From: Pontibacter sp. FD36
GTDB taxonomy: Bacteria; Bacteroidota; Bacteroidia; Cytophagales; Hymenobacteraceae
Assembly (NCBI RefSeq): GCF_015686655.1
Contig: NZ_JADPMP010000010.1
Location: 62,001 to 126,000, forward strand
Length of the DNA: 64,000 bases
Direction of reading: 5' to 3'
Under the pieces are notes generated by a model, which saw nothing but the letters and a program-made list of their open reading frames with translations, made no database searches and was not told the origin of the DNA. Made by a program: the position numbers and the translations under genes. This document shows positions 11,366 through 46,066 of this stretch, in pieces. Numbering within the stretch: position 1 is the stretch's first letter; each line of letters begins with the position of its first letter.

Positions 11366-11926
11366 CTAGCGGTTCGTTGTATTGTCTTTGCCCTCGTAAA
11401 TCAGCTGTACCACCCCGGATCTAAACCTGTTTACCTCTTTCAGATCAAGGTTTATTCTTTCTTTCAATTCTTGAAAAAGGGGTTTACCCGCCCCTAAAAC
11501 GGTAGGGTGCACGGAAATCCGGTAAATATCGATTAACCCATGCTGTATAAAAGTTGTTATAAGTTTTGCGCCACCATACAGCCAGATGTCTTTGCCGTCC
11601 TGCTTTTTGATCTCGGCAATCTTTTCGGGTATACCTGAGGAAATAAAAGTGACATCTCCGTCCTGTTGCTCTTTGCTGGTGAAAACCACCTTCTTCTTAG
11701 AATGAACAGCCGTCCAGATGGCCTTCTCCGTTTCGCTTGCGTTGGGTTCTGGCTCAAAGTTGCCCCACATCTCATAGCTCACCCGGCCATAGAGTATGGT
11801 GTCTATACCTGCCAGAAAGCCTTGGAAGTCCATGTCCTCATCCATGACACACCAATCGACTTCGCCATTCGGTCCTTCAATGTATCCGTCGAGGGTTATA
11901 GCCAGGTCTAAAATTACTTTTCGCAT
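11366..11926 (-). CDS. Dihydrofolate reductase / RibD C-terminal family protein
   Basis: The protein (186 residues from ATG at 11926) starts MRKVILDLAITLDGYIEGPNG and carries DTILYGRVSYEMW and DIWLYGGAKLITTFIQHGLID, typical of the YyaP/YwjB group of RibD-C-like reductases. These bind NADPH, but most have no known substrate. The six residues before this ATG are not part of the conserved fold. It is cytoplasmic and not in an obvious operon. Confidence 0.88.
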   Translation of the reverse strand: MRKVILDLAITLDGYIEGPNGEVDWCVMDEDMDFQGFLAGIDTILYGRVSYEMWGNFEPEPNASETEKAIWTAVHSKKKVVFTSKEQQDGDVTFISSGIPEKIAEIKKQDGKDIWLYGGAKLITTFIQHGLIDIYRISVHPTVLGAGKPLFQELKERINLDLKEVNRFRSGVVQLIYEGKDNTTNR

Positions 11927-12011
11927 AGGTTGGAGGTGTTGCACTATGTTGGGTAAGGCTATTTAAAGTGAACGTGCTTAGCTACTTTATAGGTGTTGTT
12001 GGCAGCTGTGT

Positions 12012-12890
12012 CTATTTTCTTTTGTTTCTTGACGAGATTTCAGGTACACTATTTCCAGGTCTTAGTTCTGTAACTATACTTGCTTGAGGGTAATATCTTT
12101 TAATCAAATGTCTAACAGGAGTCCCAGTCTCTTTACTTTCATTAAAAAGATTTTCGAGAGTTTCTTCAGACATTGTTTCACCTTCAGGCATTTGTATTAA
12201 GGTACTTGTGTGGAAAGGTGCATTATCCCAATCATCGGTTCTCTTCATTAAACTATCAACCTCTTCTAAGAATTCTTCATCTTCCAAAATAGACATTCCT
12301 GCTCCATAAGTATTTTTCCACAATACCTTGTCGGAAGCTTCTTCAACTAATCTAAACATAAAAACATCTTGGTCAGACAAAGGAATATGAAAGTCGTTGA
12401 ATTTTAGAAAAACGTATCCATCAACTGTCATTTGGAGATGGAAATGTGGGAAGTCAGCATTTTTTGAGTTAGAGTGTCCTTGCCTGTCTGTTTTTCCAAT
12501 ATTTATTGACCATTCAATATTTTTATATCTCACAGTATATTCTGTGATTTTGGCGGGGTTCATTTCATCTTTTAAATCATTGATGTTTTTTAGTGGAACT
12601 TCAAGATTTGCAATCCACCTGATATAACTGTCAAATTGAAAAAAACCAATTGGTTGAACCAAGTATTTCTCAAAGTGCTTCTTCTTGATTCCTTTAGGTT
12701 TTAGAAACCAGTGGAAGCAAGGATTACTTTCCTCAAAAAAATCGAGAGGTTGGGTACAAAGTGAACAGATTCCCTTTTTATAAGCTGCCTTAAATTCTTC
12801 GTATACCTTCCGATTTTCTTCAAGCTGCCGCTTATTTCCTTCTTCAATTTGTTCAGGAGTTAAGCTGTCAATGAATTCTCTTATATTCAT
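12012..12890 (-). CDS. Unrecognised AT-rich orphan gene; Cys/His cluster and HIT-like HxH motif
   Basis: I do not recognise the 292-residue protein. It has an N-terminal Lys/Glu-rich helix, then C42-x2-C45 followed by C58-x-H60, which could form a zinc site. A segment INIGKTDRQGHSNSK then ADFPHFHLQM follows, with H149 and H151. The last part resembles the phi-H-phi-H motif of HIT-superfamily nucleotide hydrolases and transferases, and some HIT proteins do carry a Cys pair at the N-terminus. The C-terminal third is acidic and looks soluble. Base composition is distinctly more AT-rich than its neighbours, which suggests recent transfer. It stands alone. Confidence 0.7.
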   Translation of the reverse strand: MNIREFIDSLTPEQIEEGNKRQLEENRKVYEEFKAAYKKGICSLCTQPLDFFEESNPCFHWFLKPKGIKKKHFEKYLVQPIGFFQFDSYIRWIANLEVPLKNINDLKDEMNPAKITEYTVRYKNIEWSINIGKTDRQGHSNSKNADFPHFHLQMTVDGYVFLKFNDFHIPLSDQDVFMFRLVEEASDKVLWKNTYGAGMSILEDEEFLEEVDSLMKRTDDWDNAPFHTSTLIQMPEGETMSEETLENLFNESKETGTPVRHLIKRYYPQASIVTELRPGNSVPEISSRNKRK

Positions 12891-13080
12891 TTTTTATTAC
12901 ATTACTGCTAGCAGGAGTACCTACTCCTACTATCTGAACTATGTGTGGAATTAGAAAGCCGTTAACAGAAGACCTCCTTCCATCACAGGTATAGCATTAA
13001 GCTAATATAACATATATTTACCGAAAGTCTTATCGGCACACGCCATTTTTAAAGTATAGCTAACAGACTAACATAAAACA

Positions 13081-13112
13081 AAAAAGGCCCCGGATCTCTC
13101 CGAGGCCTTTCA
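13081..13112 (-). terminator. Rho-independent terminator of rpsA
   Basis: AGGCCCCGG and CCGAGGCCT pair with one bulge around TCTCT. On the minus strand the stem is followed by a T-run (the complement of the A-run at 13076-13085). It lies about 20 bases after the stop. Confidence 0.85.
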
Positions 13113-13131
13113 TTATAGGACAAACTTAGTA

Positions 13132-15018
13132 CTAAGCGTTGTTCTCTTCTTCAGCAGACTCGTCATCAGAACCTTTTGCCTTTTTAGCAGCAGCAGCTTC
13201 CAACTTCTTCACGCCAGCTTCTTTCTCGTTCTCCAGCATCTGCTCTTTCAGGGCAGAAAGTGCGTCCAGGTCACCCAAGGTAGACTTGTTCTCAGCTTCT
13301 TTCTGAACTTTTGGAGCTTTCTCCTTCTTCTCACCACCGGCAGCAGGTGCAGCTTTCTTAGTGGCCTTCGCGATACGTGCGTTGTCAGCCTCAGAGTAAG
13401 TAGCAGTGTGCGACAGGATGATCTTACGGTCGTCCTTAGAGAATTCAGTTACACGGAAGTCAAGGCTCTCACCAGCTTCTACCTGTGAACCGTCTTCTTT
13501 CTGCAGACCTTTAGGGAATGAGAAACCTTCGATGCCGTATGGCAGCTCCAGTGTAGCGCCTCTGTCTGACTTCTCAAGTACAGTAGCTTTGTGTACTGAA
13601 CCTACGTTGAATACAGACTCGAACGTATCCCAAGGGTTCTCCTCCAGCTGCTTGTGACCAAGAGCAAGTCTTCTGTTAGCTACGTCAAGCTCCAGAACAA
13701 CTACGTCGAGGTTTTCACCAACTTTCACGAACTCAGATGGGTGCTTGATCTTCTTAGTCCAAGACAGGTCAGATACGTGTACCAGGCCATCAACACCTTC
13801 TTCCAGCTCCAGGAACAGACCGAAGTTTGTCAGGTTACGAACTACGCCAGTGTGCTTCGTGCCAACTGCATATTTCGTGATAACATCTTCCTTCGTCCAT
13901 GGATCTTCAGTAAGCTGCTTGATACCAAGTGACATCTTACGCTCTTCGCGGTCAAGTGTCAATACAACTGCCTCAACCTCGTCGCCTTGCTTGATGAAGT
14001 CTTGTGGGTTGCGCAGGTGCTGTGACCATGACATTTCAGAAACGTGGATCAGACCTTCAACGCCTGGCATCAGCTCAAGGAATGCGCCGTAGTCAGCTAC
14101 GTTAACGATCTTACCTTTTACTCTAGAACCAACTTCAATTTCAGCTGGAAGAGCATCCCATGGGTGCGGAGTAAGCTGCTTCATGCCAAGAGAGATACGC
14201 TTCTTGTCATCATCGAAGTCAAGCACTACCACGTTCACCTTCTGGTCAAGGTTCAATACTTCTTCTGGGTGATTAATACGTCCCCAAGAGATATCTGTGA
14301 TGTGAAGCAGACCGTCTACGCCACCAAGGTCGATGAACACACCGAAGTTTGTCATGTTCTTGATAACACCTTCCAGAACCTGACCTTTTTCCAGGTTGTT
14401 CAGGATGGCTGCACGCTGCTGCTCCAGGTCTTTCTCGATAAGTACTTTGTGAGATACAACCACGTTGTCGAAAGCGGCGTTGATTTTCACAACTTTCACT
14501 TCCATTTTCTTACCAACGAACACGTCGAAGTCACGGATCGGCTTCACGTCGATCTGAGAACCTGGCAAGAAGGCTTCAACACCGTAGAGGTCCATGATCA
14601 GACCACCTTTGGTTCTTCTCTTCACTACACCCTCCAGAACGTTGTCGTTCTCAAGTGCGTCATAGATCTTAGCCCAGGCAGATACAATCTTCGCTTTCTT
14701 GCGAGAAAGGATCAGCTGACCGTTCGGGTCTTCCTGGTCTTCGATGAATACTTCAACCTCGTCACCAACTTTCAGTTCAGGAAGATCTCTGAATTCTGAA
14801 ACTGGCACCAGGCCGTCAGATTTGAAACCGATGTTCAGGATCACGTCACGATCAGTGATGCCTACCACGATTCCTTTAACAACCTCCTGCTCCTGTACGG
14901 TAGTCAGGGTGTCGTCATACATTTTTTCCATTTCAGCGCGCTCTTCTTTGCTGTAGCCGCCACCGAAACCTTGAGACTCAAACTTGTCCCAATCGAAATT
15001 TTCTGGAGAATTACTCAT
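13132..15018 (-). CDS. rpsA: 30S ribosomal protein S1
   Basis: S1 binds mRNA on the 30S subunit and helps initiation. The 628 residues hold six S1 (OB-fold) repeats between about 40 and 550. The third to fifth are the clearest: NFGVFIDLGGVDGLLHITDI, YGAFLELMPGVEGLIHVSEM and NFGLFLELEEGVDGLVHVSD. A Lys/Ala/Glu-rich tail follows from about 555. It contains no copy of the AGGTATA motif that is frequent elsewhere. Codon use is typical of a highly expressed gene. It is flanked by a terminator and a leader of about 100 bases. Confidence 0.97.
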   Translation of the reverse strand: MSNSPENFDWDKFESQGFGGGYSKEERAEMEKMYDDTLTTVQEQEVVKGIVVGITDRDVILNIGFKSDGLVPVSEFRDLPELKVGDEVEVFIEDQEDPNGQLILSRKKAKIVSAWAKIYDALENDNVLEGVVKRRTKGGLIMDLYGVEAFLPGSQIDVKPIRDFDVFVGKKMEVKVVKINAAFDNVVVSHKVLIEKDLEQQRAAILNNLEKGQVLEGVIKNMTNFGVFIDLGGVDGLLHITDISWGRINHPEEVLNLDQKVNVVVLDFDDDKKRISLGMKQLTPHPWDALPAEIEVGSRVKGKIVNVADYGAFLELMPGVEGLIHVSEMSWSQHLRNPQDFIKQGDEVEAVVLTLDREERKMSLGIKQLTEDPWTKEDVITKYAVGTKHTGVVRNLTNFGLFLELEEGVDGLVHVSDLSWTKKIKHPSEFVKVGENLDVVVLELDVANRRLALGHKQLEENPWDTFESVFNVGSVHKATVLEKSDRGATLELPYGIEGFSFPKGLQKEDGSQVEAGESLDFRVTEFSKDDRKIILSHTATYSEADNARIAKATKKAAPAAGGEKKEKAPKVQKEAENKSTLGDLDALSALKEQMLENEKEAGVKKLEAAAAKKAKGSDDESAEEENNA

Positions 15019-32885: not shown

Positions 32886-33800
32886 CTAAGCTAATGCTGC
32901 TCTCCTCCTCTTTTTGTTTTCAAGAATAACAGCCACCATTATTCCGAAAAGTAAACCAACCAATCCGCTGATAGCCAAGTATTTTTTTAAACTCGGCCCA
33001 GTAGGTCGCAACCTCGGCGTAAATCCAGTCACGATCTCTACGTTTGCAAGTTTCTCCAAGTCTGCTTCCAAATTAACCTGTTCTTTGTACATGGAGATAC
33101 TTTCACGGTACAAATTGGTAGGATCTATGGGCTGACCGTATACGAACCCATTAACAGGCCCTCTTGGCTCGCTTACATTCGTTTTCATACTATCAATAGA
33201 AGATATTTCTCCTCTAAGCTTAGCAATCATATTTTCAACCTGCTTTTGCTTAATTCTCTTTTGACGTGCAAAATATCTATTGTTTTCCAGGTAGTTCATG
33301 ATAGCCGGTTCCAGATTATCAAAAAGCTGAGGGTCATAAATAGTTAGCTCAATTCGAAAAGGAGAACCCGTAAGCACACTGTCTTCATCGATCCTATTCT
33401 GATCAAGATTATAAAAATTCATTTCTTTGATTTCTTTTGCAGTGGCTGCTGTTATATCTAACCTTTCTGCCACCGCTTCGAAGTTGTCATCTTCTATCAT
33501 CTCCGAAAGTTTATTTAACTGATCCTCAATAAACTCATTTCGGATATTAGCTAAAACTAAAGTCATAGAAGAGGTATAGAAAGGTTTTATGAGTGAGTAC
33601 AAACCATATCCAATACCTATACTAAGCGAAGTAAAGATAAATAAAAATGCAGCCCTCCTTATAATAAGCTGAATAAGGTTGCTAATCCCCCTCTCAATGT
33701 TGATTCCAAATTCTCCCAGTTTTTTAAAAACTATGTTCAAATCAATTTCATCCTGAGTGTATTCTCTTTTAGCTTTATCTTTATCGTCTAAATTATACAT
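32886..33800 (-). CDS. Wzz-like polysaccharide chain-length determinant
   Basis: The 304-residue protein has two membrane helices: about 50-72 (AAFLFIFTSLSIGIGYGLY) and near the C-terminus (about 272-292, LAISGLVGLLFGIMVAVILE). A large periplasmic domain with coiled-coil tendency lies between them, with FTPRLRPTGPS before the second helix. This is the Wzz/FepE layout that sets glycan length. There is no C-terminal tyrosine kinase domain. It is divergent from the polysaccharide operon and AT-rich like it. Confidence 0.88.
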   Translation of the reverse strand: MYNLDDKDKAKREYTQDEIDLNIVFKKLGEFGINIERGISNLIQLIIRRAAFLFIFTSLSIGIGYGLYSLIKPFYTSSMTLVLANIRNEFIEDQLNKLSEMIEDDNFEAVAERLDITAATAKEIKEMNFYNLDQNRIDEDSVLTGSPFRIELTIYDPQLFDNLEPAIMNYLENNRYFARQKRIKQKQVENMIAKLRGEISSIDSMKTNVSEPRGPVNGFVYGQPIDPTNLYRESISMYKEQVNLEADLEKLANVEIVTGFTPRLRPTGPSLKKYLAISGLVGLLFGIMVAVILENKKRRRAALA

Positions 33801-33819
33801 TGTTAACCCAATTTTTAGG

Positions 33820-33827
33820 CAAATATA
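33820..33827 (-). promoter_or_regulatory. Possible -7 element for the Wzz-like gene
   Basis: On the minus strand TATATTTG matches TAnnTTTG, 20 bases before the start codon. No clear -33 element. The 215-base divergent spacer must hold promoters for both directions. Confidence 0.4.
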
Positions 33828-33921
33828 GTTGATAATGTAAATAGTATATTACTTACTAATTAAAATCATTGAATATCAACCGAGGGATATTCTAGTAATG
33901 AAAAATCGCACTGATTCAATA

Positions 33922-33929
33922 TATTTTTG
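33922..33929 (+). promoter_or_regulatory. Possible -7 element for the polysaccharide operon
   Basis: TATTTTTG matches TAnnTTTG, 87 bases before the GTG start of the flippase gene. No convincing -33 TTG. It implies a leader of about 80 bases. Confidence 0.35.
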
Positions 33930-34015
33930 CCTGTTAATATTCCTGAAATTTTGATACACCTTCTTAAAGCGCTAACTTGCCGCCCATTTGAAATAACACG
34001 TTTAATTGATAGTAG

Positions 34016-35293
34016 GTGAGTCTCGCTTCACGTGTCCTCGACAGGATATCTAAAAAACAACTTTATAAGAATTTTCTTGCACTACTTGTATTACAAGGAA
34101 GTAACTATATAATCCCGTTAATAACTCTTCCTTATATTATTCGCACATTAGGACCTGACAAGTTTGGTCTGATAGCATTTGCACAAGCATTTATACAATA
34201 TTTTATTATCATAACGGACTTTGGCTTTGATCTGTCGGCTACAAGACAAATCTCTATTAATAGGCATGACAAGCAAAAGGTTTCTAAGATATTTACATCT
34301 GTCCTTATTATAAAAATTTCGCTGTTTGCGCTTGGCCTTCTAATATTTCTACCGCTCATTCATTATATGCCCGATTTTAGTGCAGAAAAAGAACTTTTAA
34401 TGTGGTTCTATCTATCTGTACTGGCACAGGCGCTTTTCCCTATCTGGTTATTTCAAGGTTTAGAAACCATGAAATACATAACCTACCTAAACATCATTTC
34501 AAAAGTAATTTTTAATAGCCTCATTTTGCTCTTCATAAAAAGTGAAGCTGAGTACATACTTTATCCTGTTCTCCAATCCACAACATCACTCGCAGCAAGT
34601 GTTTTAGGAATAATAATTGTTATTGGTAGTCTGCAAGTAAGGTTCAGTAAAGTATCAAAAGCAGATCTTATAATTCAGATTAAGGAAGGATGGTATATAT
34701 TCATTTCTAATGTTACTATAAGTTTATATACAGTATCAAGTGCCTTTGTACTGGGATTATTCTTCAATAATAGGATTGTGGGTTATTACTCTTCTGCGGA
34801 GAGGGTTGTAAAAGCTTTCCAAGGTTTATTAAGCCCTGTTACACAAGCTATATACCCACATGTAAGTAATCTGTTTAATACGTCACGTAAAGACGCGATT
34901 ATTTTCTTGAGAAAGGCTACTTTATTAGTTGGAGTATTTACTTTTACGCTCTCTGCGGGTCTATTTTTCGCTTCAGATCTTATTGTAGATTATCTCTTTA
35001 AGGATGCCTATGAAGAATCTAAGTTAGTTTTGCGCATACTGGCGTGGGTACCATTTATTGTTGCAATGAGTAACATTTTTGGTATTCAAACTATGCTTAA
35101 TTTAAAATACAGGAAACAATTCTTTCGCATTTTGCTAATTTGCAGTGCTATTCACCTGGCCATAGTGGTAGTCCTAGGATACAATTTTATGCATATCGGT
35201 GTAGCAACTTCTGTACTTTTCACAGAAGCTCTCATAGCAATTATGATGTATAGATTTCTGGTAACAAAACGGATATATCTTATAAAATTATAA
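34016..35293 (+). CDS. Oligosaccharide flippase (Wzx-like, MOP superfamily)
   Basis: The 425-residue polytopic protein has about 12 helices. It opens with SKKQLYKNFLALLVLQGSNY-type sequence, then IIPLITLPYIIRTLGPDKFG, the usual start of Wzx/RfbX proteins. It should move lipid-linked repeat units across the inner membrane. The start is GTG at 34016. It is the first gene of the operon, 1 base from glf. Confidence 0.9.
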   Translation: MSLASRVLDRISKKQLYKNFLALLVLQGSNYIIPLITLPYIIRTLGPDKFGLIAFAQAFIQYFIIITDFGFDLSATRQISINRHDKQKVSKIFTSVLIIKISLFALGLLIFLPLIHYMPDFSAEKELLMWFYLSVLAQALFPIWLFQGLETMKYITYLNIISKVIFNSLILLFIKSEAEYILYPVLQSTTSLAASVLGIIIVIGSLQVRFSKVSKADLIIQIKEGWYIFISNVTISLYTVSSAFVLGLFFNNRIVGYYSSAERVVKAFQGLLSPVTQAIYPHVSNLFNTSRKDAIIFLRKATLLVGVFTFTLSAGLFFASDLIVDYLFKDAYEESKLVLRILAWVPFIVAMSNIFGIQTMLNLKYRKQFFRILLICSAIHLAIVVVLGYNFMHIGVATSVLFTEALIAIMMYRFLVTKRIYLIKL

Positions 35294-35294
35294 A

Positions 35295-36398
35295 ATGTAC
35301 GATTATTTAATAGTAGGTGCTGGCATGTACGGGGCTACATTTGCCCGTGAAATGACTGACAAAGGCAAGAAGTGTCTTGTAATTGACAGAAGAAGCCATA
35401 TTGCTGGAAACTGTTATACAGAAAATAAAGAGGGAATAAACATACATAAATATGGTGCGCATATTTTCCATACAGATGATGAGAATATCTGGAATTATGT
35501 GCAGCGTTTTGCTGAATTCAATAATTTCAAAAATAGTCCTCGCGTCAGGTATAAAGACAAAATATATTCTTTCCCGATAAACCTGTTCACATTATACCAA
35601 ATATATGGGGTACAAACACCTGAAGAAGCAAGGCAGAAGTTGGAAGAGGTAAGAGTTAAGAATGATAATCCACAAAACTTAGAAGAGTGGATACTGTCGC
35701 AGGTTGGTGAGGAAATTTATGATATCTTCATAAAAGGCTACACTACAAAGCAGTGGATGAAAGATCCAAAGGAACTACCTTCATTTATCATCAAGCGGTT
35801 GCCTATTAGGCTGAACTTTAATGATAACTATTTCTTTGACAGATTTCAAGGTATACCTATCGGAGGCTATACAAAACTATTTGAGAATTTGCTTTCAGGT
35901 ATAGAGGTGCAACTTGACACGGACTATTTTGCTGATCGCGATTATTTCGATGGTCTGGCCGACAAAGTTGTATTTACTGGCAGGATTGATGAATTCTATA
36001 ATTACCGTTTTGGCGAGTTGGAATATAGGACACTCCGATTTGAGCATTCCTATCATGCTATAGAAGATTATCAAGGGAATGCTGTGGTAAATTACACAGA
36101 ACTGGATATACCTTATACCCGGATAATAGAACACAAGCACTTTGAGTTTGGTAAACAACCTTATACTTATGTCACCAAAGAGTACCCGGAAGTGTGGCAA
36201 AAAGACAGCATTCCGTATTATCCAATTAATGACGATACGAATACCAAAATATTTAACCAGTATAAAACTCTCAGTAAAGAGGAAACGAAATACATATTTG
36301 GTGGTCGTTTAGCAGACTACCGATACTATGACATGCACCAGGTAATCGGTTCGGCACTGGCAAAGGTTCGCAGAATTGAGGAAACCATTTCAGCTTAA
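35295..36398 (+). CDS. glf: UDP-galactopyranose mutase
   Basis: Glf converts UDP-galactopyranose to UDP-galactofuranose with reduced FAD. The 367 residues match: the dinucleotide-binding YLIVGAGMYGATFARE, then KYGAHIFHTDD and a later FGGRLADYRYYDMHQVIG typical of Glf. It predicts galactofuranose in the glycan made here. It is the second gene of the operon. Confidence 0.97.
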   Translation: MYDYLIVGAGMYGATFAREMTDKGKKCLVIDRRSHIAGNCYTENKEGINIHKYGAHIFHTDDENIWNYVQRFAEFNNFKNSPRVRYKDKIYSFPINLFTLYQIYGVQTPEEARQKLEEVRVKNDNPQNLEEWILSQVGEEIYDIFIKGYTTKQWMKDPKELPSFIIKRLPIRLNFNDNYFFDRFQGIPIGGYTKLFENLLSGIEVQLDTDYFADRDYFDGLADKVVFTGRIDEFYNYRFGELEYRTLRFEHSYHAIEDYQGNAVVNYTELDIPYTRIIEHKHFEFGKQPYTYVTKEYPEVWQKDSIPYYPINDDTNTKIFNQYKTLSKEETKYIFGGRLADYRYYDMHQVIGSALAKVRRIEETISA

Positions 36399-36403
36399 AA
36401 TAC

Positions 36404-37579
36404 ATGCGAATTTTATTTTACTGCCTCACATTCTATCCTGAAAACTCTGGTTACTCTAATGCTTTTCAGAATCTTGTCAAAGCTATTACAAACTATTACC
36501 CTGAAGTACAGATCGATTTAGTAACACCGAATAACTTAGGAGATAAAGCTGAGTTTTCAGCCCCTAACGTGAATGTGATCAGGTTAAACTATAAGCTTAC
36601 AAAAAATAAGCTTGGTTTCTTTTTAAACAGCTACCTGTTTGCAAAGCAATTCAATCAGCTGTTCTTAAAACAGAATTATGATCTAGCCTTTGTTGAAACC
36701 TTTGAAGATTATGTATTTCTGAGTAACCTACATCGAAATGTTTACAAGAAACTATTGGTAAGGGTTCACTCTACATTCGAGACAGAATACATGGTTTACT
36801 TCCCTAATTTTAAATATAAGTTAGGAAAATATATTTTAAAGAATTTTGTATTCAACAAAGTAAAGTACGTTGCATCTACAAATAACTTCCACATAGACTT
36901 TATCAAAACTCACTACTTAGATAACAACTTATACCATATAGCCCATAAAGGCTATTTTACACTTCCGAATACGATGCCAATGGTAGCGGGTGATACTCAA
37001 GGTGATAGTATCCCAGTTGGAAAGCTGAAGTTTTTTACACTAGGTAGAATGGACGAAGGCGGTTATCTGCAGAAGGGATTTGACGATTTGCTCAATGCAT
37101 TAATCCTTATAAAGGATAAAGTGAGAGATAAAATAGAAGTAAAAATAGTTGGTAAAGGAGATTACCAGGCGAAACTTAAATCAAAGGCTAAAGAAAACAA
37201 TCTAAGTTTTATACAATTTATTGACGGTTTTACGCATCATGAAACATTGGAACAGCTGATAGCTTCTGATGTAGTCATACTACCGTCGCGGTATGAAGGC
37301 CTGTCGATGTTTGCCTTAGAAGCTATTGCAACATCTAATGCCGTACTGTTTTCTAATACAGGTGGATTGATCGATCTGGTCGAAAACAATGGGTTTCTGT
37401 TTGAGCCACAGAACGTAGAAGACATGGCTTGCAAAATTGAAAAATTGGTTTTCTCATCCCCGGTAGCTTTAGCAGAGATGAAAAGAAATTCTGTTAATGT
37501 ATTCACAGCAAAGTTTTCGGAGAAAGCAACCGCAGACAAATTCTATAATATTCTTAAGATAGTTAAAGCTGATAATTAA
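36404..37579 (+). CDS. GT4-type glycosyltransferase
   Basis: The 391-residue GT-B protein has an N-terminal acceptor domain (YCLTFYPENSGYSNAFQNLV) and a C-terminal donor domain with FTLGRMDEGGYLQKGFDDLL and the E-x7-E-like motif PSRYEGLSMFALEAIATS. It has no membrane helix and should act at the cytoplasmic face. Its TAA overlaps the ATG of the next gene. The sugar added is unknown. Confidence 0.9.
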   Translation: MRILFYCLTFYPENSGYSNAFQNLVKAITNYYPEVQIDLVTPNNLGDKAEFSAPNVNVIRLNYKLTKNKLGFFLNSYLFAKQFNQLFLKQNYDLAFVETFEDYVFLSNLHRNVYKKLLVRVHSTFETEYMVYFPNFKYKLGKYILKNFVFNKVKYVASTNNFHIDFIKTHYLDNNLYHIAHKGYFTLPNTMPMVAGDTQGDSIPVGKLKFFTLGRMDEGGYLQKGFDDLLNALILIKDKVRDKIEVKIVGKGDYQAKLKSKAKENNLSFIQFIDGFTHHETLEQLIASDVVILPSRYEGLSMFALEAIATSNAVLFSNTGGLIDLVENNGFLFEPQNVEDMACKIEKLVFSSPVALAEMKRNSVNVFTAKFSEKATADKFYNILKIVKADN

Positions 37580-39483
37580 TGTGTGGAATTACGGGGTTTT
37601 GTGATTTTACCTCCAGGTCAGGTATAGAACATTTAAAACTAATGACCAATGCTTTGGAACATCGGGGACCAGATGACTCCGGCATCAAAGTATGGGGTAA
37701 TGATAACAGCAGTGTTGGATTTGGCCATAGGAGATTGTCTATTCTGGACTTGTCCATGAATGGCCATCAGCCGATGCTCAGCCTAAATAGTCAGTTTGCT
37801 ATTGTCTACAACGGTGAAGTTTACAATTTCGCGGATATAAGAAAGGAACTTCAGCAACTAGGTTATCAATTTAATTCTAATTCTGATACAGAAGTTATTT
37901 TAAATGCATTTATAGCCTGGGGAATAGATTCAGTTCATAAGTTCATAGGCATGTTCGCCTATGCTATTTATGATATCCAGAACCAGCTTATTCACATCGT
38001 ACGTGATAGAGCTGGTGTCAAGCCGCTTTATTATTATTTTCATGAAGGGCTTTTTCTCTTTTCGTCTGAATTAAAGGCTTTCTATAAACACACAGCTTTC
38101 CAGAAACAAATAGATTATGATAGTGTAGGCAATTTCCTTCAATATGGATACATCCCTACCCCTTATACGATTTTCCAAAATACGCATAAGCTAAAGCCAG
38201 GTCATTCCCTTACCATTGATTTAAGAACTCAGCAAATTAATGACAAGCCTTATTGGGACCTATCCCAATTCTACGGTGCAAATACTGGAATTTCGATAGA
38301 GCAGGCTATTGAAGAAATAGAACCCTTACTTATTTCCGCCTGCAATTACAGAATGGTATCGGATGTCCCGGTAGGTGTTTTCCTGAGCGGTGGATATGAC
38401 AGCACATTAGTTACGGCACTTATTCAGGCTAACCAGTCTCAAAAGCTGAAGACTTTTTGTATTGGATTCGATGACAAGCAATTTAACGAAGCAAAGTATG
38501 CAAGGGAGGTAGCCAATCATTTGGGGACAGACCACACAGAATATAATTGCACTCCAGACGATTTGCTGAACATTGTGCCTGATTTGCCCTACATATATGA
38601 TGAGCCATTTGGAGATAGCTCAGCGGTGCCAACTATTTTGGTTAGCAGAATTGCTCAGAAACATGTATCTGTCGTGTTATCTGCCGATGCAGGCGACGAG
38701 GTTTTTGCTGGATATGGAAAGTACTCAACCTTCCTTTCAATCTACCAGAAGTATAATAATATTCCAAGCTATGCAAAAAAGGCACTATCCAGGATATTAG
38801 AAACTAATATCCACAGAGGACTGGACTTTTTGAATATCTATAACCTCGAAACGCGTGTCGCAAAAACGAAAGAACTTTTCTCAAATCAGGATATTAATGC
38901 TTACTTCAATGTCCTAAGCCAGTTCTTCTCCACAGAAGAAATCACTTTACTTTTAAAGGGCTCTTACAATTCCGGAAGGAGTACATTCTTCAATTCGGGC
39001 AGAAATAGTATAGGAGGTGATGATATGAACTCACTCCTATTGACAGATTTCAGAACCTTTTTGCTAGACGACATTTTAACTAAAGTTGACAGGGCAACTA
39101 TGTCGGTTAGCATTGAAGGTCGTGAACCATTGTTAGATCATCGCATAGCTGAGTATGTGGCAAAGCTACCTTCTTCCTATAAAATTAAGGATGGAGTTTC
39201 AAAATACATGCTTAAAGAAATAGTGCACAAGTATGTGCCATCAACGATAATGAATCGTCCTAAGATGGGATTCAGTATACCATTATCTAAATGGCTGAAT
39301 GCTGATCTGAAGCCAATGGTGATGGACTACTTTAGCCCGGACTATATCAAATCTCAAGGTATTTTTGACCCTATGAGATTTAACAGCATAAGAGATCAGT
39401 ATGTTAAAGAGAAAAAATATAACCCACAGAAAATGTGGTTTATATTGATGTTTCAGATGTGGCATGAGAAATGGATGAATTAG
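37579..39483 (+). CDS. asnB: AsnB-type glutamine-dependent amidotransferase
   Basis: The 634 residues comprise an N-terminal glutamine amidohydrolase domain with Cys2 as nucleophile (MCGITGF) and a synthetase domain with PP-loop SGGYDS (270-275) and GREPLLDHRIAEYVAKLP. It is annotated as asparagine synthase by homology. Within a glycan operon such proteins often amidate uronic acids, which is the better guess here. It is translationally coupled to the upstream glycosyltransferase (TAATG). Confidence 0.92.
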   Translation: MCGITGFCDFTSRSGIEHLKLMTNALEHRGPDDSGIKVWGNDNSSVGFGHRRLSILDLSMNGHQPMLSLNSQFAIVYNGEVYNFADIRKELQQLGYQFNSNSDTEVILNAFIAWGIDSVHKFIGMFAYAIYDIQNQLIHIVRDRAGVKPLYYYFHEGLFLFSSELKAFYKHTAFQKQIDYDSVGNFLQYGYIPTPYTIFQNTHKLKPGHSLTIDLRTQQINDKPYWDLSQFYGANTGISIEQAIEEIEPLLISACNYRMVSDVPVGVFLSGGYDSTLVTALIQANQSQKLKTFCIGFDDKQFNEAKYAREVANHLGTDHTEYNCTPDDLLNIVPDLPYIYDEPFGDSSAVPTILVSRIAQKHVSVVLSADAGDEVFAGYGKYSTFLSIYQKYNNIPSYAKKALSRILETNIHRGLDFLNIYNLETRVAKTKELFSNQDINAYFNVLSQFFSTEEITLLLKGSYNSGRSTFFNSGRNSIGGDDMNSLLLTDFRTFLLDDILTKVDRATMSVSIEGREPLLDHRIAEYVAKLPSSYKIKDGVSKYMLKEIVHKYVPSTIMNRPKMGFSIPLSKWLNADLKPMVMDYFSPDYIKSQGIFDPMRFNSIRDQYVKEKKYNPQKMWFILMFQMWHEKWMN

Positions 39484-39489
39484 AGCTAC

Positions 39490-40590
39490 ATGAGAATCAA
39501 TATTTTTTTCATTATCCCCTCCTTGCATGGTGGTGGATCTGAGCGATTTGTTACGCATCTGGTAAAGAATCTGAATGCAGTTAAATTTAATATAACACTG
39601 GTATTAGTTAGAAAAGAAGGTGTATTCTTAAGTGAGATTCCATCTCATGTCCGAATTTTGGATTTGAATCTTAGCAGGACAAGGTATGCTCCATTTAAAG
39701 TAATAAAACTGATCTGGCGGCATAAACCGGATATTGTATTCTCTACTCTCGGTCATTTAAATCTAGTCATTGCAGGAATAAGGCATGTTCTCCCAAAATC
39801 AACTAAATTTATTGCCAGAGAATCAAGCACAGTAAGTGTACACAACAAAAATGAGGTATATCCAGCCTTATTTGATTTTCTGTTCAGAACAGTCTATAGA
39901 TCATTTGATAAAATTGTGTGTCAATCCCGATACATGCAGCATGATCTACTAAAGAATTATAATATACCTGTTGAGAAAACGATAGTTATCAATAACCCAA
40001 TAGATGAGGACTATATCCGTTTCAAGGCAGGCATGGCTAGCACACCGTTTCCGGCGGACAAAATAAATTTTGTGGCGGTTGGAAGGCTGTCCAAAGAAAA
40101 GGGGTTTGATAGACTAATAGAATCATTCAAGATTATTCGGGATAAAAGCATACACTTAAACATTATTGGGGACGGTGTGGATAAAGTAAAGCTGCAACAA
40201 TATGTGGCAGCAGCAGGGCTCGGTGAGAGCATTTCGTTTTTAGGTTTTCAGAGTAATCCATACCCGTATATGGAATCTGCCAAGGCTCTTATTCAAACAT
40301 CATACTATGAAGGCTTTCCGAATGTAATAATAGAAGCAAATGCTTGCGGCACACCGGTAATTGGATTCAAAAGCCCAGGGGGTATTGCCGAAATTGTTGA
40401 CAATATCAAAAGCGGATGGCTGATTGAGGACGGCAATTTGGCTGAATTAGCTAATAAGATACAGGAAGTAGCCTATATTAAATTTGATCCGGAATCTGCA
40501 AAGAGTTATACATCAGCCAGATTCTCTTTAAAGAAAATAATCGGCGAATACGAACAGTTGTTCATCAGCATTCTTAACAGGAAAGCATAA
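39490..40590 (+). CDS. GT4-type glycosyltransferase
   Basis: The 366 residues open with FFIIPSLHGGGSERFVTHLV, the GGG acceptor loop of GT4 enzymes, and contain AVGRLSKEKGFDRLIESF and the donor-site motif SYYEGFPNVIIEANACGTPV. A soluble, cytoplasmic enzyme is expected. It lies between asnB and the first polymerase-like gene with gaps of about 10 bases or less. Confidence 0.93.
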   Translation: MRINIFFIIPSLHGGGSERFVTHLVKNLNAVKFNITLVLVRKEGVFLSEIPSHVRILDLNLSRTRYAPFKVIKLIWRHKPDIVFSTLGHLNLVIAGIRHVLPKSTKFIARESSTVSVHNKNEVYPALFDFLFRTVYRSFDKIVCQSRYMQHDLLKNYNIPVEKTIVINNPIDEDYIRFKAGMASTPFPADKINFVAVGRLSKEKGFDRLIESFKIIRDKSIHLNIIGDGVDKVKLQQYVAAAGLGESISFLGFQSNPYPYMESAKALIQTSYYEGFPNVIIEANACGTPVIGFKSPGGIAEIVDNIKSGWLIEDGNLAELANKIQEVAYIKFDPESAKSYTSARFSLKKIIGEYEQLFISILNRKA

Positions 40591-40600
40591 GGATATATAG

Positions 40601-41920
40601 ATGAGAGTATCGTTAAATAATATACTATTTTATTCATTACTTACGCTCCCTATTTCTTTCAAAATCCAGTTTTATGAAGGGGTGTTTTTATACCCGCAGG
40701 AGATAATTATGGCTTTAGTTATTCTACTAATTGTCATTGTTGATTCAAAAAGATATTTGCATTTACCTAAATATATAAGTCCTTTCTTTTATTATTTAAT
40801 TTCGATTGGCATCATTGTACTATGCACTCTCATTTCATTCGCCAACTATATTGATATTTCTGGTCTGTTTAAATCTATTAAGTATGGGCTTTATATTGTA
40901 GCGATATGCCTTATTGCTAAAAATAACTTTTACTCGTTTGTCGATACATTTAATAAAATAGCATTCTTAAGTATTCTGTTCACTATATCCCTTTATGCTA
41001 TCCAGTGGTACAACTATCCAGGTAGCACTGGCGATTATTTCTCACTTACTACATGGGATGTAAACTACGTACCTTCTGGGTTATCAAATCTGAACTTAAG
41101 CCTTTCTGATTTCACTTTTTCCCGGTCGGCTGGTAATCATGGTATTTATGGGTCTTACTTAGTCCTTGTATACATCCTCAATATTCACATTTTAGTTTCT
41201 GAAAATATAAAGGAGAATAAGTTTAGTTTGATTTTAGTAATATTAGCGGTTTTCAATTTACTCCTATTAACCTCAAGGGAGTCTATATTGATTTTTGTGC
41301 TGGTTAATGCAGCCTTTTTTCTAAAAGATTTGCTTCGTCTCAGGATAAAAAAAATATACTTCTACTTTTTTATAGCGCTTTCGGTATTCCTGATCGTAAT
41401 CATCTCAAAAGGCGTCAATTTGGGTCTTATTAATAAGATACAGTATACAATTGAATCATTTTCAACCTCTGGAGGGGAGCAGAATCTGAACCTTAGGTTC
41501 AATGTATGGGTATTAATTCTGCTTTCTTATCTGTTGTTCCCATTACACCTTTTAATAGGCTATGGTTATAATGAACCTAATTTTATAGATTACCTGGAAC
41601 AGACAAATGCGGAATTAGCTCACTTTCAGCATTTTGCCACCGTTCCTGAAAGTTTGTTCTTTGTAATGCTAGCATATGGAGGCATTCTTGCGCTAATATC
41701 CATTTGCCTTTTTTTCTTAACCATTTTGCTTAAAACCTTTAATCTGCGTAAATTTTCTCCCCTTCATACACTTTTCTTTTATTTTGTGATAGGACTGCTT
41801 ATAACTAATAATACTGGAGCATCTCTTATGTCGGATTTACTTCTGGCACAGTTTTCTCTTTTTTATATTTTCATCAACAAGACTTATGAGCAAGATAAAG
41901 CTGTTGCTTATAACCGTTAG
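40601..41920 (+). CDS. O-antigen polymerase-like (Wzy) membrane protein
   Basis: The 439-residue protein is very hydrophobic, with about 11 helices and a large extracytoplasmic loop (about residues 130-185 and again near 310-350). This fits Wzy-type polymerases, which are conserved in topology but not in sequence. Its end overlaps the next glycosyltransferase by 35 bases. It is strongly AT-rich. Confidence 0.78.
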   Translation: MRVSLNNILFYSLLTLPISFKIQFYEGVFLYPQEIIMALVILLIVIVDSKRYLHLPKYISPFFYYLISIGIIVLCTLISFANYIDISGLFKSIKYGLYIVAICLIAKNNFYSFVDTFNKIAFLSILFTISLYAIQWYNYPGSTGDYFSLTTWDVNYVPSGLSNLNLSLSDFTFSRSAGNHGIYGSYLVLVYILNIHILVSENIKENKFSLILVILAVFNLLLLTSRESILIFVLVNAAFFLKDLLRLRIKKIYFYFFIALSVFLIVIISKGVNLGLINKIQYTIESFSTSGGEQNLNLRFNVWVLILLSYLLFPLHLLIGYGYNEPNFIDYLEQTNAELAHFQHFATVPESLFFVMLAYGGILALISICLFFLTILLKTFNLRKFSPLHTLFFYFVIGLLITNNTGASLMSDLLLAQFSLFYIFINKTYEQDKAVAYNR

Positions 41921-42971
41921 GGCAGATTACGGTGGAGGGCCGCGCCACGTAGATTTACTTATAAATAATATTTCTGCTGACTTTAAAGTACATGTGGCCT
42001 GTCCCGATGATAAGCCCTATTACGGCTTATGGCAGCGAAATCAGCATGTTAATGGTATTTTCAATCTACCCCATCGTAAGTTTAAAACGAGCGCGCTTTT
42101 AGCTCTATCTAAATTTATAAAAGAAAATAGTATCTCCGTTGTCCACTCACATGGGAAAGGAGCAGGCGTTTACTCTCGATTTCTGAAAATACTAAACCCT
42201 GCACTAAAAGTAGTTCATACCTTCCACGGCGTGCATACACAGGAGTATGGCAAAGTAGCCAAGATGCTTTACTACGGCTATGAAAATGCAGCCAAACACC
42301 TGACAGACAAGTTCATCAATGTGTCTTATGGAGAAGGGGATATTTGCGTTACAGGTGGGTTTTGCCAAAAGGAGAAGCAGACAACGATTTACAACGGCGT
42401 TCCTGATCTTTCTACACTCACAAAAGCGAATGGAAAGAGCTCAGCAGAGACATTTGAAGTAGTCTCTATCTCCAGGTTTGACTTTTCAAAGCATATGCAG
42501 CTAGCTTTGAAAATTGCTGCCCTACTTCACGATCATAAGCACATTAAGTTTATCTGGGTTGGCGATGGTCCGGACAAGCTAAGCTTGGAGAAACAGGCGG
42601 AATCGGATGGGTTAACTAATATTGTATTTACCGGTTTTACTGATAATCCCGAGAAATATTTACAATCAGCTAAACTATACCTGTCTACCTCTAGATGGGA
42701 AGGTCTACCACTCTCTTTGGTGGAAGCAGCATCATTGAGTATTCCGATCGTGGCTACTAATGTGACAGGCAATAATGAAGTGGTTCAACATGGTGTAAAC
42801 GGTTTTTTGTACCAATCAGATTCTCCTCAGGATGCAGCAGATGCTATTATAAAGCTGATTCAGAATCAAGCGCTACTTGATGAATTTTCGAATAATTCCC
42901 GAAGAATATATGAAGATAAGTTCACGGTTGATTTGATGGTGAATAAAACTGAACTGGTGTATAAAACCTAA
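41886..42971 (+). CDS. GT4-type glycosyltransferase
   Basis: The 361 residues start LLLITVRADYGGGPRHVDLL and include VVHTFHGVHTQEYG, then VSISRFDFSKHMQLALKIAA and the donor motif TSRWEGLPLSLVEAASLSIP. GT-B fold, cytoplasmic. The start overlaps the polymerase-like gene, so translation is coupled. Confidence 0.92.
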   Translation: MSKIKLLLITVRADYGGGPRHVDLLINNISADFKVHVACPDDKPYYGLWQRNQHVNGIFNLPHRKFKTSALLALSKFIKENSISVVHSHGKGAGVYSRFLKILNPALKVVHTFHGVHTQEYGKVAKMLYYGYENAAKHLTDKFINVSYGEGDICVTGGFCQKEKQTTIYNGVPDLSTLTKANGKSSAETFEVVSISRFDFSKHMQLALKIAALLHDHKHIKFIWVGDGPDKLSLEKQAESDGLTNIVFTGFTDNPEKYLQSAKLYLSTSRWEGLPLSLVEAASLSIPIVATNVTGNNEVVQHGVNGFLYQSDSPQDAADAIIKLIQNQALLDEFSNNSRRIYEDKFTVDLMVNKTELVYKT

Positions 42972-43019
42972 TTAGTTTCAATTTACTGCCGATGTAGTTA
43001 TATTGCCAAACTTATCAAA

Positions 43020-43733
43020 ATGATTACTATGATAGACAGAGACTTAAATTATGGCAGGCACATCATCAAAAGCTATCTGTCTTCAGAAGGTGTTGGTCCT
43101 AAGACTGTATTAGATTTAGGCGCTGGTCAGGGAGCTGATTTGCTGATTGCACGACATGCAAACCCTGAAGCGACATTACACGCTGTCGAGTGCTATGGCC
43201 CCTACATAGAAAGTTTAAAATCGAAAAATATAGAGGTTCATTCATTGAACATTGAATGTGATTCACTACCGTTTGAAGACCAGTCTATCGATATAGTGAT
43301 TGCAAACCAGATATTGGAACATACGAAGGAAATCTTCTGGATATTCCATGAAGTAACAAGAGTCCTAAAACCTGGTGGCAAATTTATAGTGGGGGTTCCT
43401 AACTTGGCATCATTTCACAATAGACTTATGCTATTATTTGGCTCCCAACCGACTAGTTTAAAGAACAATAGCGCTCATGTGAGAGGTTATACTTTACCTG
43501 ATCTAAAAAGATTTGTACATTCTTGTTTCCCGAATGGGTATAAGATTTCTAAATTTGCCGGGAGCAATTTTTATCCTTTTCCTCCAATGCTGGCTCGGCC
43601 ATTAGCGAGTCTCCTACCTAGTATGGCATGGGCGATTTTTCTAATGCTGGAAAAAAAGAATACTTACACCAATGAGTTTCTGAATTATCCGATAACGGAG
43701 AGGCTGGAAACTAACTTCTATTTAGGCAAATAG
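43020..43733 (+). CDS. Class I SAM-dependent methyltransferase
   Basis: The 237-residue protein has motif I TVLDLGAGQGADLLI and a later DIVIANQILEHTKEIFWIFH with VLKPGGKFIVGVPN, typical of type-11 methyltransferases. In this setting it may O-methylate a sugar. The C-terminal half has a hydrophobic segment (PLASLLPSMAWAIFLML) that may be membrane-associated. ATG at residue 4 is an alternative start. Its TAG overlaps the GTG of the next gene. Confidence 0.88.
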   Translation: MITMIDRDLNYGRHIIKSYLSSEGVGPKTVLDLGAGQGADLLIARHANPEATLHAVECYGPYIESLKSKNIEVHSLNIECDSLPFEDQSIDIVIANQILEHTKEIFWIFHEVTRVLKPGGKFIVGVPNLASFHNRLMLLFGSQPTSLKNNSAHVRGYTLPDLKRFVHSCFPNGYKISKFAGSNFYPFPPMLARPLASLLPSMAWAIFLMLEKKNTYTNEFLNYPITERLETNFYLGK

Positions 43734-44845
43734 TGAAAACAGCTATAGTACATGATTGGATTCCATTAATGGGGGGAGCCGAAAAAGTATTGGAAGAAAT
43801 TCACCGTTCTTATCCGGGGAACATCTATACTTTAATGAAAAACGAGGACGCTATTAAAGGCACTTATTTCAGCAATTGTACTATCAATACCTCTTTCATC
43901 CAAAGATTACCTTTCTCCAAGAATAAATATAGAAGCTATTTGCCATTATTTCCAATGGCGGTAGAGCAGTTCAACCTTACTGGGTATGACTTGGTCATAT
44001 CCTCTTCTTATGCAGTTGCGAAGGGCGCTCTGACGAATTCAAATCAGCTCCACATTTGCTACTGCCACTCCCCTATTCGTTATGCCTGGGATCTTTATCA
44101 TCAATACCTGGAGGAAGCAAACTTAAAGAAAGGTATCAAGGGGATAATTGCAAAATCTGTTCTCCATTATATAAGGTTATGGGATGCGTCAACTATTAAC
44201 CGAGTAGACCATTTCATTGCTAACTCGAACTACATTGCAAGGCGGATTAAGAAAGTTTATAATAGGGAGGCTACTGTCATTTACCCTCCAGTTGACGTGG
44301 ATAATTTCAGTCTTTGTGTAAACAAGGAAGATTTCTATATGACCGCTTCACGTATGGTATCATACAAGAGAATAGATCTGATAGTAGAAGCCTTCTCAAA
44401 AATGCCAGACAAGAAGCTGATTGTAATAGGTGAAGGTCCTGATTTTAATAAGATTAAAGCGAAAGCAGGCAATAATATTATAATGTTAGGTTACCAGCCT
44501 TACGATGTGCTTAAAGACCACATGCAACGTGCTAAAGCATTTGTCTTTGCAGCCGAAGAGGATTTTGGTATTACACCTGTCGAGGCACAAGCCTGTGGTA
44601 CTCCGGTGATAGCCTTCGGAAAAGGTGGCACCTTGGAAACAGTTAAACTTGAGACAGGTGTGTTTTTCTATTCCCAAGAATGCGATAGTATCATAAAGGC
44701 TGTAGACGAGTTTGAATCCCGAGCTCACATTTTTGATAGTTATGTAATAAGGGCAAATGCGGAGAGGTTCAGCAGGCAAAACTTTGTTGCTAATTTCAAG
44801 TCCTTTATCAAGAGCAAGTACGATGAGTTTATACAACAGGATTAG
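43733..44845 (+). CDS. GT4-type glycosyltransferase (mannosyltransferase-like)
   Basis: The 370 residues start KTAIVHDWIPLMGGAEKVLE and contain ICYCHSPIRYAWDLYHQYLE and AAEEDFGITPVEAQACGTPV, a pattern common in WbaZ/MtfB-like mannosyl- or related transferases. The start is GTG at 43733. Donor specificity is a family-level guess. It overlaps the next gene by 23 bases. Confidence 0.92.
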   Translation: MKTAIVHDWIPLMGGAEKVLEEIHRSYPGNIYTLMKNEDAIKGTYFSNCTINTSFIQRLPFSKNKYRSYLPLFPMAVEQFNLTGYDLVISSSYAVAKGALTNSNQLHICYCHSPIRYAWDLYHQYLEEANLKKGIKGIIAKSVLHYIRLWDASTINRVDHFIANSNYIARRIKKVYNREATVIYPPVDVDNFSLCVNKEDFYMTASRMVSYKRIDLIVEAFSKMPDKKLIVIGEGPDFNKIKAKAGNNIIMLGYQPYDVLKDHMQRAKAFVFAAEEDFGITPVEAQACGTPVIAFGKGGTLETVKLETGVFFYSQECDSIIKAVDEFESRAHIFDSYVIRANAERFSRQNFVANFKSFIKSKYDEFIQQD

Positions 44846-46061: not shown

Positions 46062-46066
46062 TTTAA

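What the first reader, a model, noticed from the sequence alone, without database searches (positions are those of the whole stretch)
12012..12890. AT-rich orphan protein combines a Cys/His cluster with a HIT-like HxH motif
The gene stands out in base composition and has no recognised family. C42-x2-C45 with C58-x-H60, and a later PHFHLQM preceded by INIGKTDRQGHS, resemble the zinc site and catalytic strand of HIT-superfamily proteins, but the spacing and the long acidic C-terminal part are unlike standard members. It may be a divergent nucleotide-processing enzyme, perhaps acquired.
Basis: inference. Interest (0 to 1): 0.55.

Follow-up and report, generated by a model that had tools for sequence, protein, structure and literature searches.

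The report
Rare hotspot-borne orphan protein, Cys/His-rich core
This is a rare, AT-rich gene found at a spot where related bacteria carry many different genes; its invariant cysteines and histidines look like a metal or active site, but the proposed match to the HIT enzyme family could not be shown.

Summary
The gene is real: 292 aa, minus strand 12012-12890, GC 0.344 in surroundings of 0.47-0.53, no family hit. All quoted motifs are there. Three intact homologues (45-53% identity: a congener, a Saprospiraceae MAG, Sunxiuqinia elliptica) keep C42, C45, C58, H60, H139, H149, H151, Q153, and also D166 and H168. Read from sequence, H149/H151/Q153 and D166/H168 share one face of a beta hairpin, like an active or metal site. 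HFHLQ has the HxHxQ form of the GalT branch, but HIT membership is not supported: profile comparisons give at most 3.1% probability with marginal controls. Both structure predictions failed (pLDDT 41 and 38), so the fold test was impossible. 'Acquired' is supported: the site just downstream of rpsA is hypervariable (18 clusters of first gene in 24 congeners), and the family is rare (2 of 50 genomes of the genus). Two of five known loci lie near defence-like genes. Most likely a zinc-stabilised hydrolase or nuclease carried as single-gene cargo; activity is inferred, not shown. Interest modest.

The parts
12012..12890 (-). orphan protein gene, 292 aa
   Evidence: ORF and translation; three intact homologues at 45-53% identity
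12711..12767 (-). Cys/His cluster C42-x2-C45-x12-C58-x-H60, candidate zinc site
   Evidence: invariant in 4 of 4 intact copies
12474..12497 (-). loop before the HxH strand; G132, D135, G138, H139 invariant
   Evidence: alignment
12387..12449 (-). P148-H149-F-H151-L-Q153 strand, D157-G158 turn, return strand ending N165-D166-F167-H168: candidate active-site hairpin
   Evidence: invariant residues; the hairpin is a reading of the sequence, with low-confidence models
11945..13131 (.). hypervariable spot between the RibD_C/DHFR-like gene and rpsA that holds the gene
   Evidence: comparison with 23 congeneric loci
13080..13111 (-). rpsA intrinsic terminator, so the gene is probably transcribed on its own
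   Evidence: 13-pair stem followed by a U run, z -3.99 for the 72-nt stretch; 52-60 bp here conserved in the four closest loci compared
11366..11944 (-). RibD C-terminal domain (dihydrofolate-reductase-like) protein, one flank
   Evidence: Pfam PF01872, E 2.5e-25
13132..15018 (-). ribosomal protein S1 (rpsA), other flank
   Evidence: six S1 stretches, PF00575 E 1.2e-79

Best explanation
A rare accessory protein of Bacteroidota, carried as exchangeable single-gene cargo. Its conserved core (about residues 38-190) probably has an N-terminal zinc site made by C42, C45, C58 and H60 that holds the fold, and an antiparallel beta meander in which one face of a hairpin presents H149, H151, Q153, D166 and H168, with H139 and D135 from the preceding loop. 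The most likely work of such a face is phosphoester or nucleotide-linkage hydrolysis (metal-assisted or by a catalytic histidine) on a nucleic acid or nucleotide, and the likely role is defence or competition between mobile elements. Shown: the gene, the invariance, the hypervariable spot, the rarity, defence-like neighbours at two homologous loci. Inferred: zinc binding, the hairpin geometry, hydrolase or nuclease activity, the role.
For: Residues invariant in 4 of 4 intact copies at 45-53% identity. The core is the conserved part: 66 of 153 positions invariant in 38-190, against 7 of 37 before and 21 of 102 after. Around a D157-G158 turn H149/H151/Q153 would face the same way as F164/D166/H168, with F/Y150, L/I152, M154, V156, F161, F167 on the other side (residues). 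Both poor models place strands at 117-122, 125-131 and about 149-156 and a helix from 173. Context: in L003 the gene lies between a 383-aa protein that I read as PD-(D/E)xK-like and an OLD-family ATPase-TOPRIM protein; in G004 it lies beside DUF5677 and a UvrD-type helicase, with McrBC genes 5-9 kb away. Hypervariable rpsA spot, with integrase-family genes at or next to it in 2 of 24 loci.
Against: No fold was obtained, so the hairpin is a reading of the sequence, and the supposed inner face also holds invariant N165 and K/R163. No family or PDB sequence match supports any enzyme class: profile hits in the PDB have E 0.011 or worse and look like chance; the single protein has none at E<=10. 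Three of five loci show no defence-like neighbour: the window copy, L004 (DUF6994 and, by my reading, sugar-metabolism genes) and the broken copy in G499 (by my reading). No partner gene is shared. The 383-aa neighbour has no significant Pfam or PADLOC hit.
Confidence: 0.42

Rival explanations
1. A strongly diverged member of the GalT/Ap4A-phosphorylase branch of the HIT superfamily: H151 the nucleophile, Q153 in place of the third His, CxxC plus His a structural zinc.
For: PHFHLQM fits HXHXQ, the GalT-type motif (wording seen in PMC7705103, passages only); a strand and a glycine-containing loop precede it; hhalign puts PHFHLQM on the GalT C-terminal HIT-like strand with score 24.0, reached by 1 of 100 shuffles.
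Against: hhalign probability 0.6-0.8% for HIT and 2.1-3.1% for GalT; HIT scores were reached by 14, 7 and 6 of 100 shuffles, GalT by 1, 2 and 0 of 100, and both by 2 of 60 in a second run, the same as HNH. The GalT alignment has 7% identity. Tight hairpins on both sides of the motif strand and invariant D166/H168 are not HIT features as I recall them. The fold matches name no HIT protein in the rows listed, but the models are too poor for this to count.
Confidence: 0.17
2. A non-enzymatic zinc-binding protein, for example a nucleic-acid-binding protein or an inhibitor or sensor; the histidines are structural or bind a second metal.
Against: The model is of very low confidence, so those rows mean little; invariance of H149, H151, Q153, D166 and H168 is more than a structural site would seem to need.
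Confidence: 0.27
3. An HNH/treble-clef nuclease (CxxC...H60 as the metal finger) or an HUH nuclease (H149-F-H151 as HUH).
For: CSLC...CFHW resembles the start of an HNH finger (hhalign score 18.8 to HNH, 2 of 60 shuffles reach it); H-F-H is His-hydrophobic-His.
Against: No Asn or His is invariant in the 41 residues after H60 (the next is N102) and no tyrosine after H151 is invariant, as an HUH nuclease needs; the HUH (Y1 transposase) profile score is reached by 19 of 60 shuffles.
Confidence: 0.06
4. A decaying or functionless acquired gene.
For: The copy in G499 is broken by stops and frame changes; distribution is sporadic.
Against: The window copy and three others are intact with motif residues kept at 45-53% identity.
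Confidence: 0.05

Closest known systems
HIT superfamily, GalT / Ap4A phosphorylase branch (PF02744 and relatives)
   Same: H-x-H-x-Q motif on a predicted strand; a CxxC earlier in the chain
   Different: profile similarity marginal at best; extra invariant D166/H168 and tight hairpins; one short chain without a second GalT half
HIT proper (PF01230)
   Same: alternating histidines and hydrophobic residues
   Different: third His is Gln in 4 of 4; profile scores reached by 6-14 of 100 shuffles; all 19 related genomes searched have a PF01230 match of their own
Single-gene cargo of variable chromosomal spots
   Same: AT-rich lone gene at a site where congeners carry other genes
   Different: this cargo family has no model in the four libraries searched

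Membership tests
[quoted passage not shown]
   third position is Q153 in 4 of 4
HIT superfamily (GalT/Ap4A phosphorylase branch) | H-x-H-x-Q-phi-phi motif | tested here: met
   full motif in 3 of 4; the window copy has M-T at the last two positions, so it meets HxHxQ-phi only; definition seen in PMC7705103 passages
HIT superfamily | sequence-profile similarity to family members | tested here: not met
   0 Pfam hits for the window protein at E<=10; no HIT or GalT family among the hits of the 4 members; hhalign probability at most 3.1%. Power is low: Neff 1.7 for the query, 2.5 and 2.8 for the templates
HIT superfamily | HIT fold with the motif strand lining a nucleotide pocket | tested here: inconclusive
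   models with mean pLDDT 40.7 and 38.3, pTM 0.30 and 0.24; Foldseek gives nothing at E<=0.001
HIT superfamily | nucleotide hydrolase or transferase activity through the central His | not testable with these tools
   needs purified protein
HUH endonuclease | catalytic tyrosine C-terminal to the HUH motif (recalled) | tested here: not met
   invariant Tyr are Y30, Y76, Y89, Y122 only, all before H149
HNH endonuclease | Asn and His/Asn following the first His of the finger (recalled) | tested here: not met
   no invariant N or H between H60 and N102; position 72 is H/N/Y/H; profile score marginal, 2 of 60 shuffles
Horizontally exchanged cargo gene | present at a site where close relatives carry other genes | tested here: met
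   18 clusters of first minus-strand ORF among 24 congeneric loci; this gene only in G000

The most novel reading that the evidence does not exclude
A new enzyme family that reached a GalT-like HxHxQ site independently, with a second invariant D-x-H on the same hairpin face, acting as a one-gene anti-phage or anti-plasmid nuclease or nucleotide hydrolase exchanged at the rpsA spot and, in one MAG, built into an operon with an OLD-family nuclease.
Probability: 0.12. Interest if true: 0.6.

Novelty: new member of a known kind. Interest (0 to 1): 0.3.

Why it matters
It is one more undescribed accessory protein family with a clear, testable active-site-like cluster. The hypervariable slot behind rpsA, seen in the 24 congeneric loci compared and with integrase-family genes at or next to it in two of them, is a defined place to look for further uncharacterised cargo, some of it possibly defensive.

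Tried and rejected
Relatives in phages, plasmids and viral contigs: none credible. Of the five weak phage rows (E 0.8-7) I looked at one, in a Pseudomonas phage: the match covers 27 residues near the end of a 247-aa protein (sequence) that I take, from its place before the helicase gene, to be a replication protein; it reads CQFL where this family has CxxC and has no HxHxQ part; rejected as chance. The eight viral stretches carry no relative in a profile search of their six frames (best E 0.13).

The G195 match (E 7.9e-4, three stops inside) was not recovered with the profile and was dropped as chance. My translation was of the + strand although the match is on the - strand of that contig, so probably shows nothing.

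Weak hits dropped: YkyB, MA3, BING4CT (Pfam, one member each, best E 0.02-0.28), acetoacetate-CoA ligase (NCBIfam, one member, E 0.00095), phrog_13373 (28-34 residues of two members, E 0.0048 and 0.063), nuclear cap-binding protein and Get1 (PDB, E 0.011-0.089). None is shared by the whole family, and none covers the HxHxQ strand in all.

Fold searches were run on models too poor to trust and are not used as evidence for or against HIT. In one search only 50 of 471 rows are listed.

Rows left out of the profile tests: in the HIT set 19 sequences were used; L020 and L036 (over-long frames) were dropped and L037 was not used; L042 and L043 went into the GalT set (14 sequences), and L056 was left out. 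HNH: 22 of 25 loci, three long proteins dropped. HUH: 17 of 25 loci. These sets come from related genomes only, so they are narrow. In the motif count the HIT and GalT loci (L020-L056) were left out.

Papers: 'HIT domain + anti-phage + Bacteroidetes' 0 papers; 'DUF5677' 1 paper, listing with start of abstract only, not relevant; 'histidine triad / GalT / HxHxQ' 55 papers, 8 listed, one looked at by passages; 'rpsA + integration hotspot + Bacteroidetes' 0 papers. These say only that this library has no such paper.

Not tested: integron-type attC sites or other recombination repeats at the rpsA spot.

Full report
What is there. The window 12012-12890 (-) encodes a 292-aa protein. It is AT-rich (GC 0.344, GC3 0.284) in surroundings of 0.47-0.53 (10-15 kb). 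It lies alone between a RibD_C/DHFR-like gene and rpsA, downstream of an rpsA terminator (13080-13111, z -3.99 for the stretch folded). Four profile libraries give no hit for this protein at E<=10, and phmmer against PDB chains gives none.

Homologues. Intact copies: G004 of the same genus (45%), a Saprospiraceae MAG (L003, 52%) and Sunxiuqinia elliptica (L004, 53%). One genome of the same family, G499, holds a copy broken by stops and frame changes, in which the first two motif cysteines are replaced. Counts, own genome included: 2 of 59 relatives; 2 of 50 in the genus; 3 of 150 in the family sample; 1 of 390 in the order sample; 1 of 315 in the class sample; 1 of 395 in the phylum sample with the profile. 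With the single protein the phylum sample gave 2 of 395, the second being a match with three stops that I dropped. The genome-contig scan with the single protein found two relatives; it reaches close relatives only. None in plasmids or viral contigs, nothing credible in phages. So it is rare and patchy, spread over distinct Bacteroidota lineages.

Conservation. In the four intact copies 94 of 292 positions are invariant, and 8 of 11 Cys/His are (p 0.006): C42, C45, C58, H60, H139, H149, H151, H168. The middle part 38-190 is the conserved core (66 of 153), the ends less so (7 of 37; 21 of 102). Reading the core: Y-K-N-I (122-125) and V-D-G (156-158) look like tight hairpin turns. If D157-G158 is a two-residue turn, H149, H151, Q153 and F164, D166, H168 share one face, and F/Y150, L/I152, M154, V156 with F161, F167 the other; invariant N165 and K/R163 also fall on that other face, so the alternation is not perfect (residues). 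That is an inference from sequence. The two AlphaFold2 runs place strands at 117-122, 125-131 and about 149-156, but with mean pLDDT 40.7 and 38.3 and pTM 0.30 and 0.24, from only three sequences each.

Is it HIT? The motif is of the HXHXQ-phi-phi form reported for GalT-like HIT proteins (PMC7705103, passages seen), fully so in 3 of 4, and not HphiHphiHphiphi. Among 290 ORFs examined, H-phi-H-phi-Q occurs only in this family's four members; HIT and GalT loci were not in that set. Profile-profile comparison is weak: HIT probability 0.6-0.8%, GalT 2.1-3.1%. Shuffle controls: HIT reached by 14, 7 and 6 of 100; GalT by 1, 2 and 0 of 100, for the full profile and two cuts; a second run gave 2 of 60 for HIT, GalT and HNH alike and 19 of 60 for HUH. 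The GalT alignment does set PHFHLQM on the C-terminal HIT-like strand, yet at 7% identity. Power is low: Neff 1.7 for the query, 2.5 and 2.8 for the templates. Foldseek on the two poor models returned nothing at E<=0.001; the top rows of the first were PUR repeats (best E 0.096), the best of the second had E 2.2. I do not file it as a HIT protein; 'works somewhat like one' stays open. HUH fails for lack of an invariant tyrosine after the motif, and HNH for lack of an invariant N or H in the 41 residues after H60.

Acquired? Yes, by position. The rpsA end was recovered in 37 of 39 genomes searched; L057-L080 are the 24 loci of the genus (25 genomes of the genus were in the search; G018 gave no match). 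The first minus-strand ORF of at least 90 aa beyond rpsA within 1.5 kb falls into 18 clusters in these 24 loci: this gene (G000 only), a GNAT acetyltransferase (G008, G009; Pfam run on the G009 copy), an S41 peptidase (G016), DUF2625 (G010), a methyltransferase-like protein (G001, below cut-off), FMN reductase (G004, clustering with G013), proteins without a Pfam hit (G015, G020, G012, G017, G006), an integrase-family protein (G003), and others not scanned. G013 also has a 99-aa integrase-family piece one gene further on. In five (G011, G023, G007, G019, G024) the first such ORF reads like the cphA-like gene that in the window lies 5.4 kb further on, so the window seems to carry added material between rpsA and it (the name cphA and the match are my reading). 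Some upstream leader is shared (12905-12951 with G010 and G002; 70% over 228 bp with G015), so cargo may be swapped behind a partly kept leader. The G004 homologue is not at this spot (contig C1, rpsA on C9).

Neighbours of homologues. L003: a 383-aa protein with a PD-(D/E)xK-like stretch (my reading; no significant Pfam hit), then the homologue, an OLD-family ATPase-TOPRIM protein, and a 1284-aa protein with a P-loop-like match below the Pfam cut-off, all on one strand with gaps of 96-183 bases. G004: DUF5677 just upstream, then a UvrD-type helicase, with McrBC genes 5-9 kb away. L004: DUF6994 downstream, sugar-metabolism genes around by my reading. G499 and the window: no defence-like neighbour that I recognised. 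Thus two of five loci are defence-like, and no partner is shared.

Conclusion. An undescribed, rare, horizontally exchanged protein family with an invariant Cys/His site and a probable active-site hairpin. A zinc-stabilised hydrolase or nuclease with a defence or competition role is the best guess (0.42).

Noticed in passing
window 11945-13131 and L057-L080: The site downstream of rpsA is hypervariable across the genus: 18 clusters of first minus-strand ORF in 24 loci, many AT-rich (GC 0.32-0.45), with integrase-family genes at or next to it in G003 and G013.
   Followed up: partly
window 32886-47449: A second AT-rich stretch (33-46 kb) reads as an ordinary exopolysaccharide cluster: chain-length protein, flippase, UDP-galactopyranose mutase, glycosyltransferases, asparagine synthase, polymerase/ligase-like proteins, initiating sugar transferase (names by reading of the ORFs; no family search).
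   Followed up: no
L003 4851-12826: A four-gene, same-strand set (383-aa nuclease-like protein by reading, the homologue, OLD-family ATPase-TOPRIM, 1284-aa NTPase-like protein) that looks like an undescribed defence operon.
   Followed up: partly
L011 2517-3394: A broken copy of the gene in G499, with the first two motif cysteines replaced but PHFHLQM kept.
   Followed up: partly
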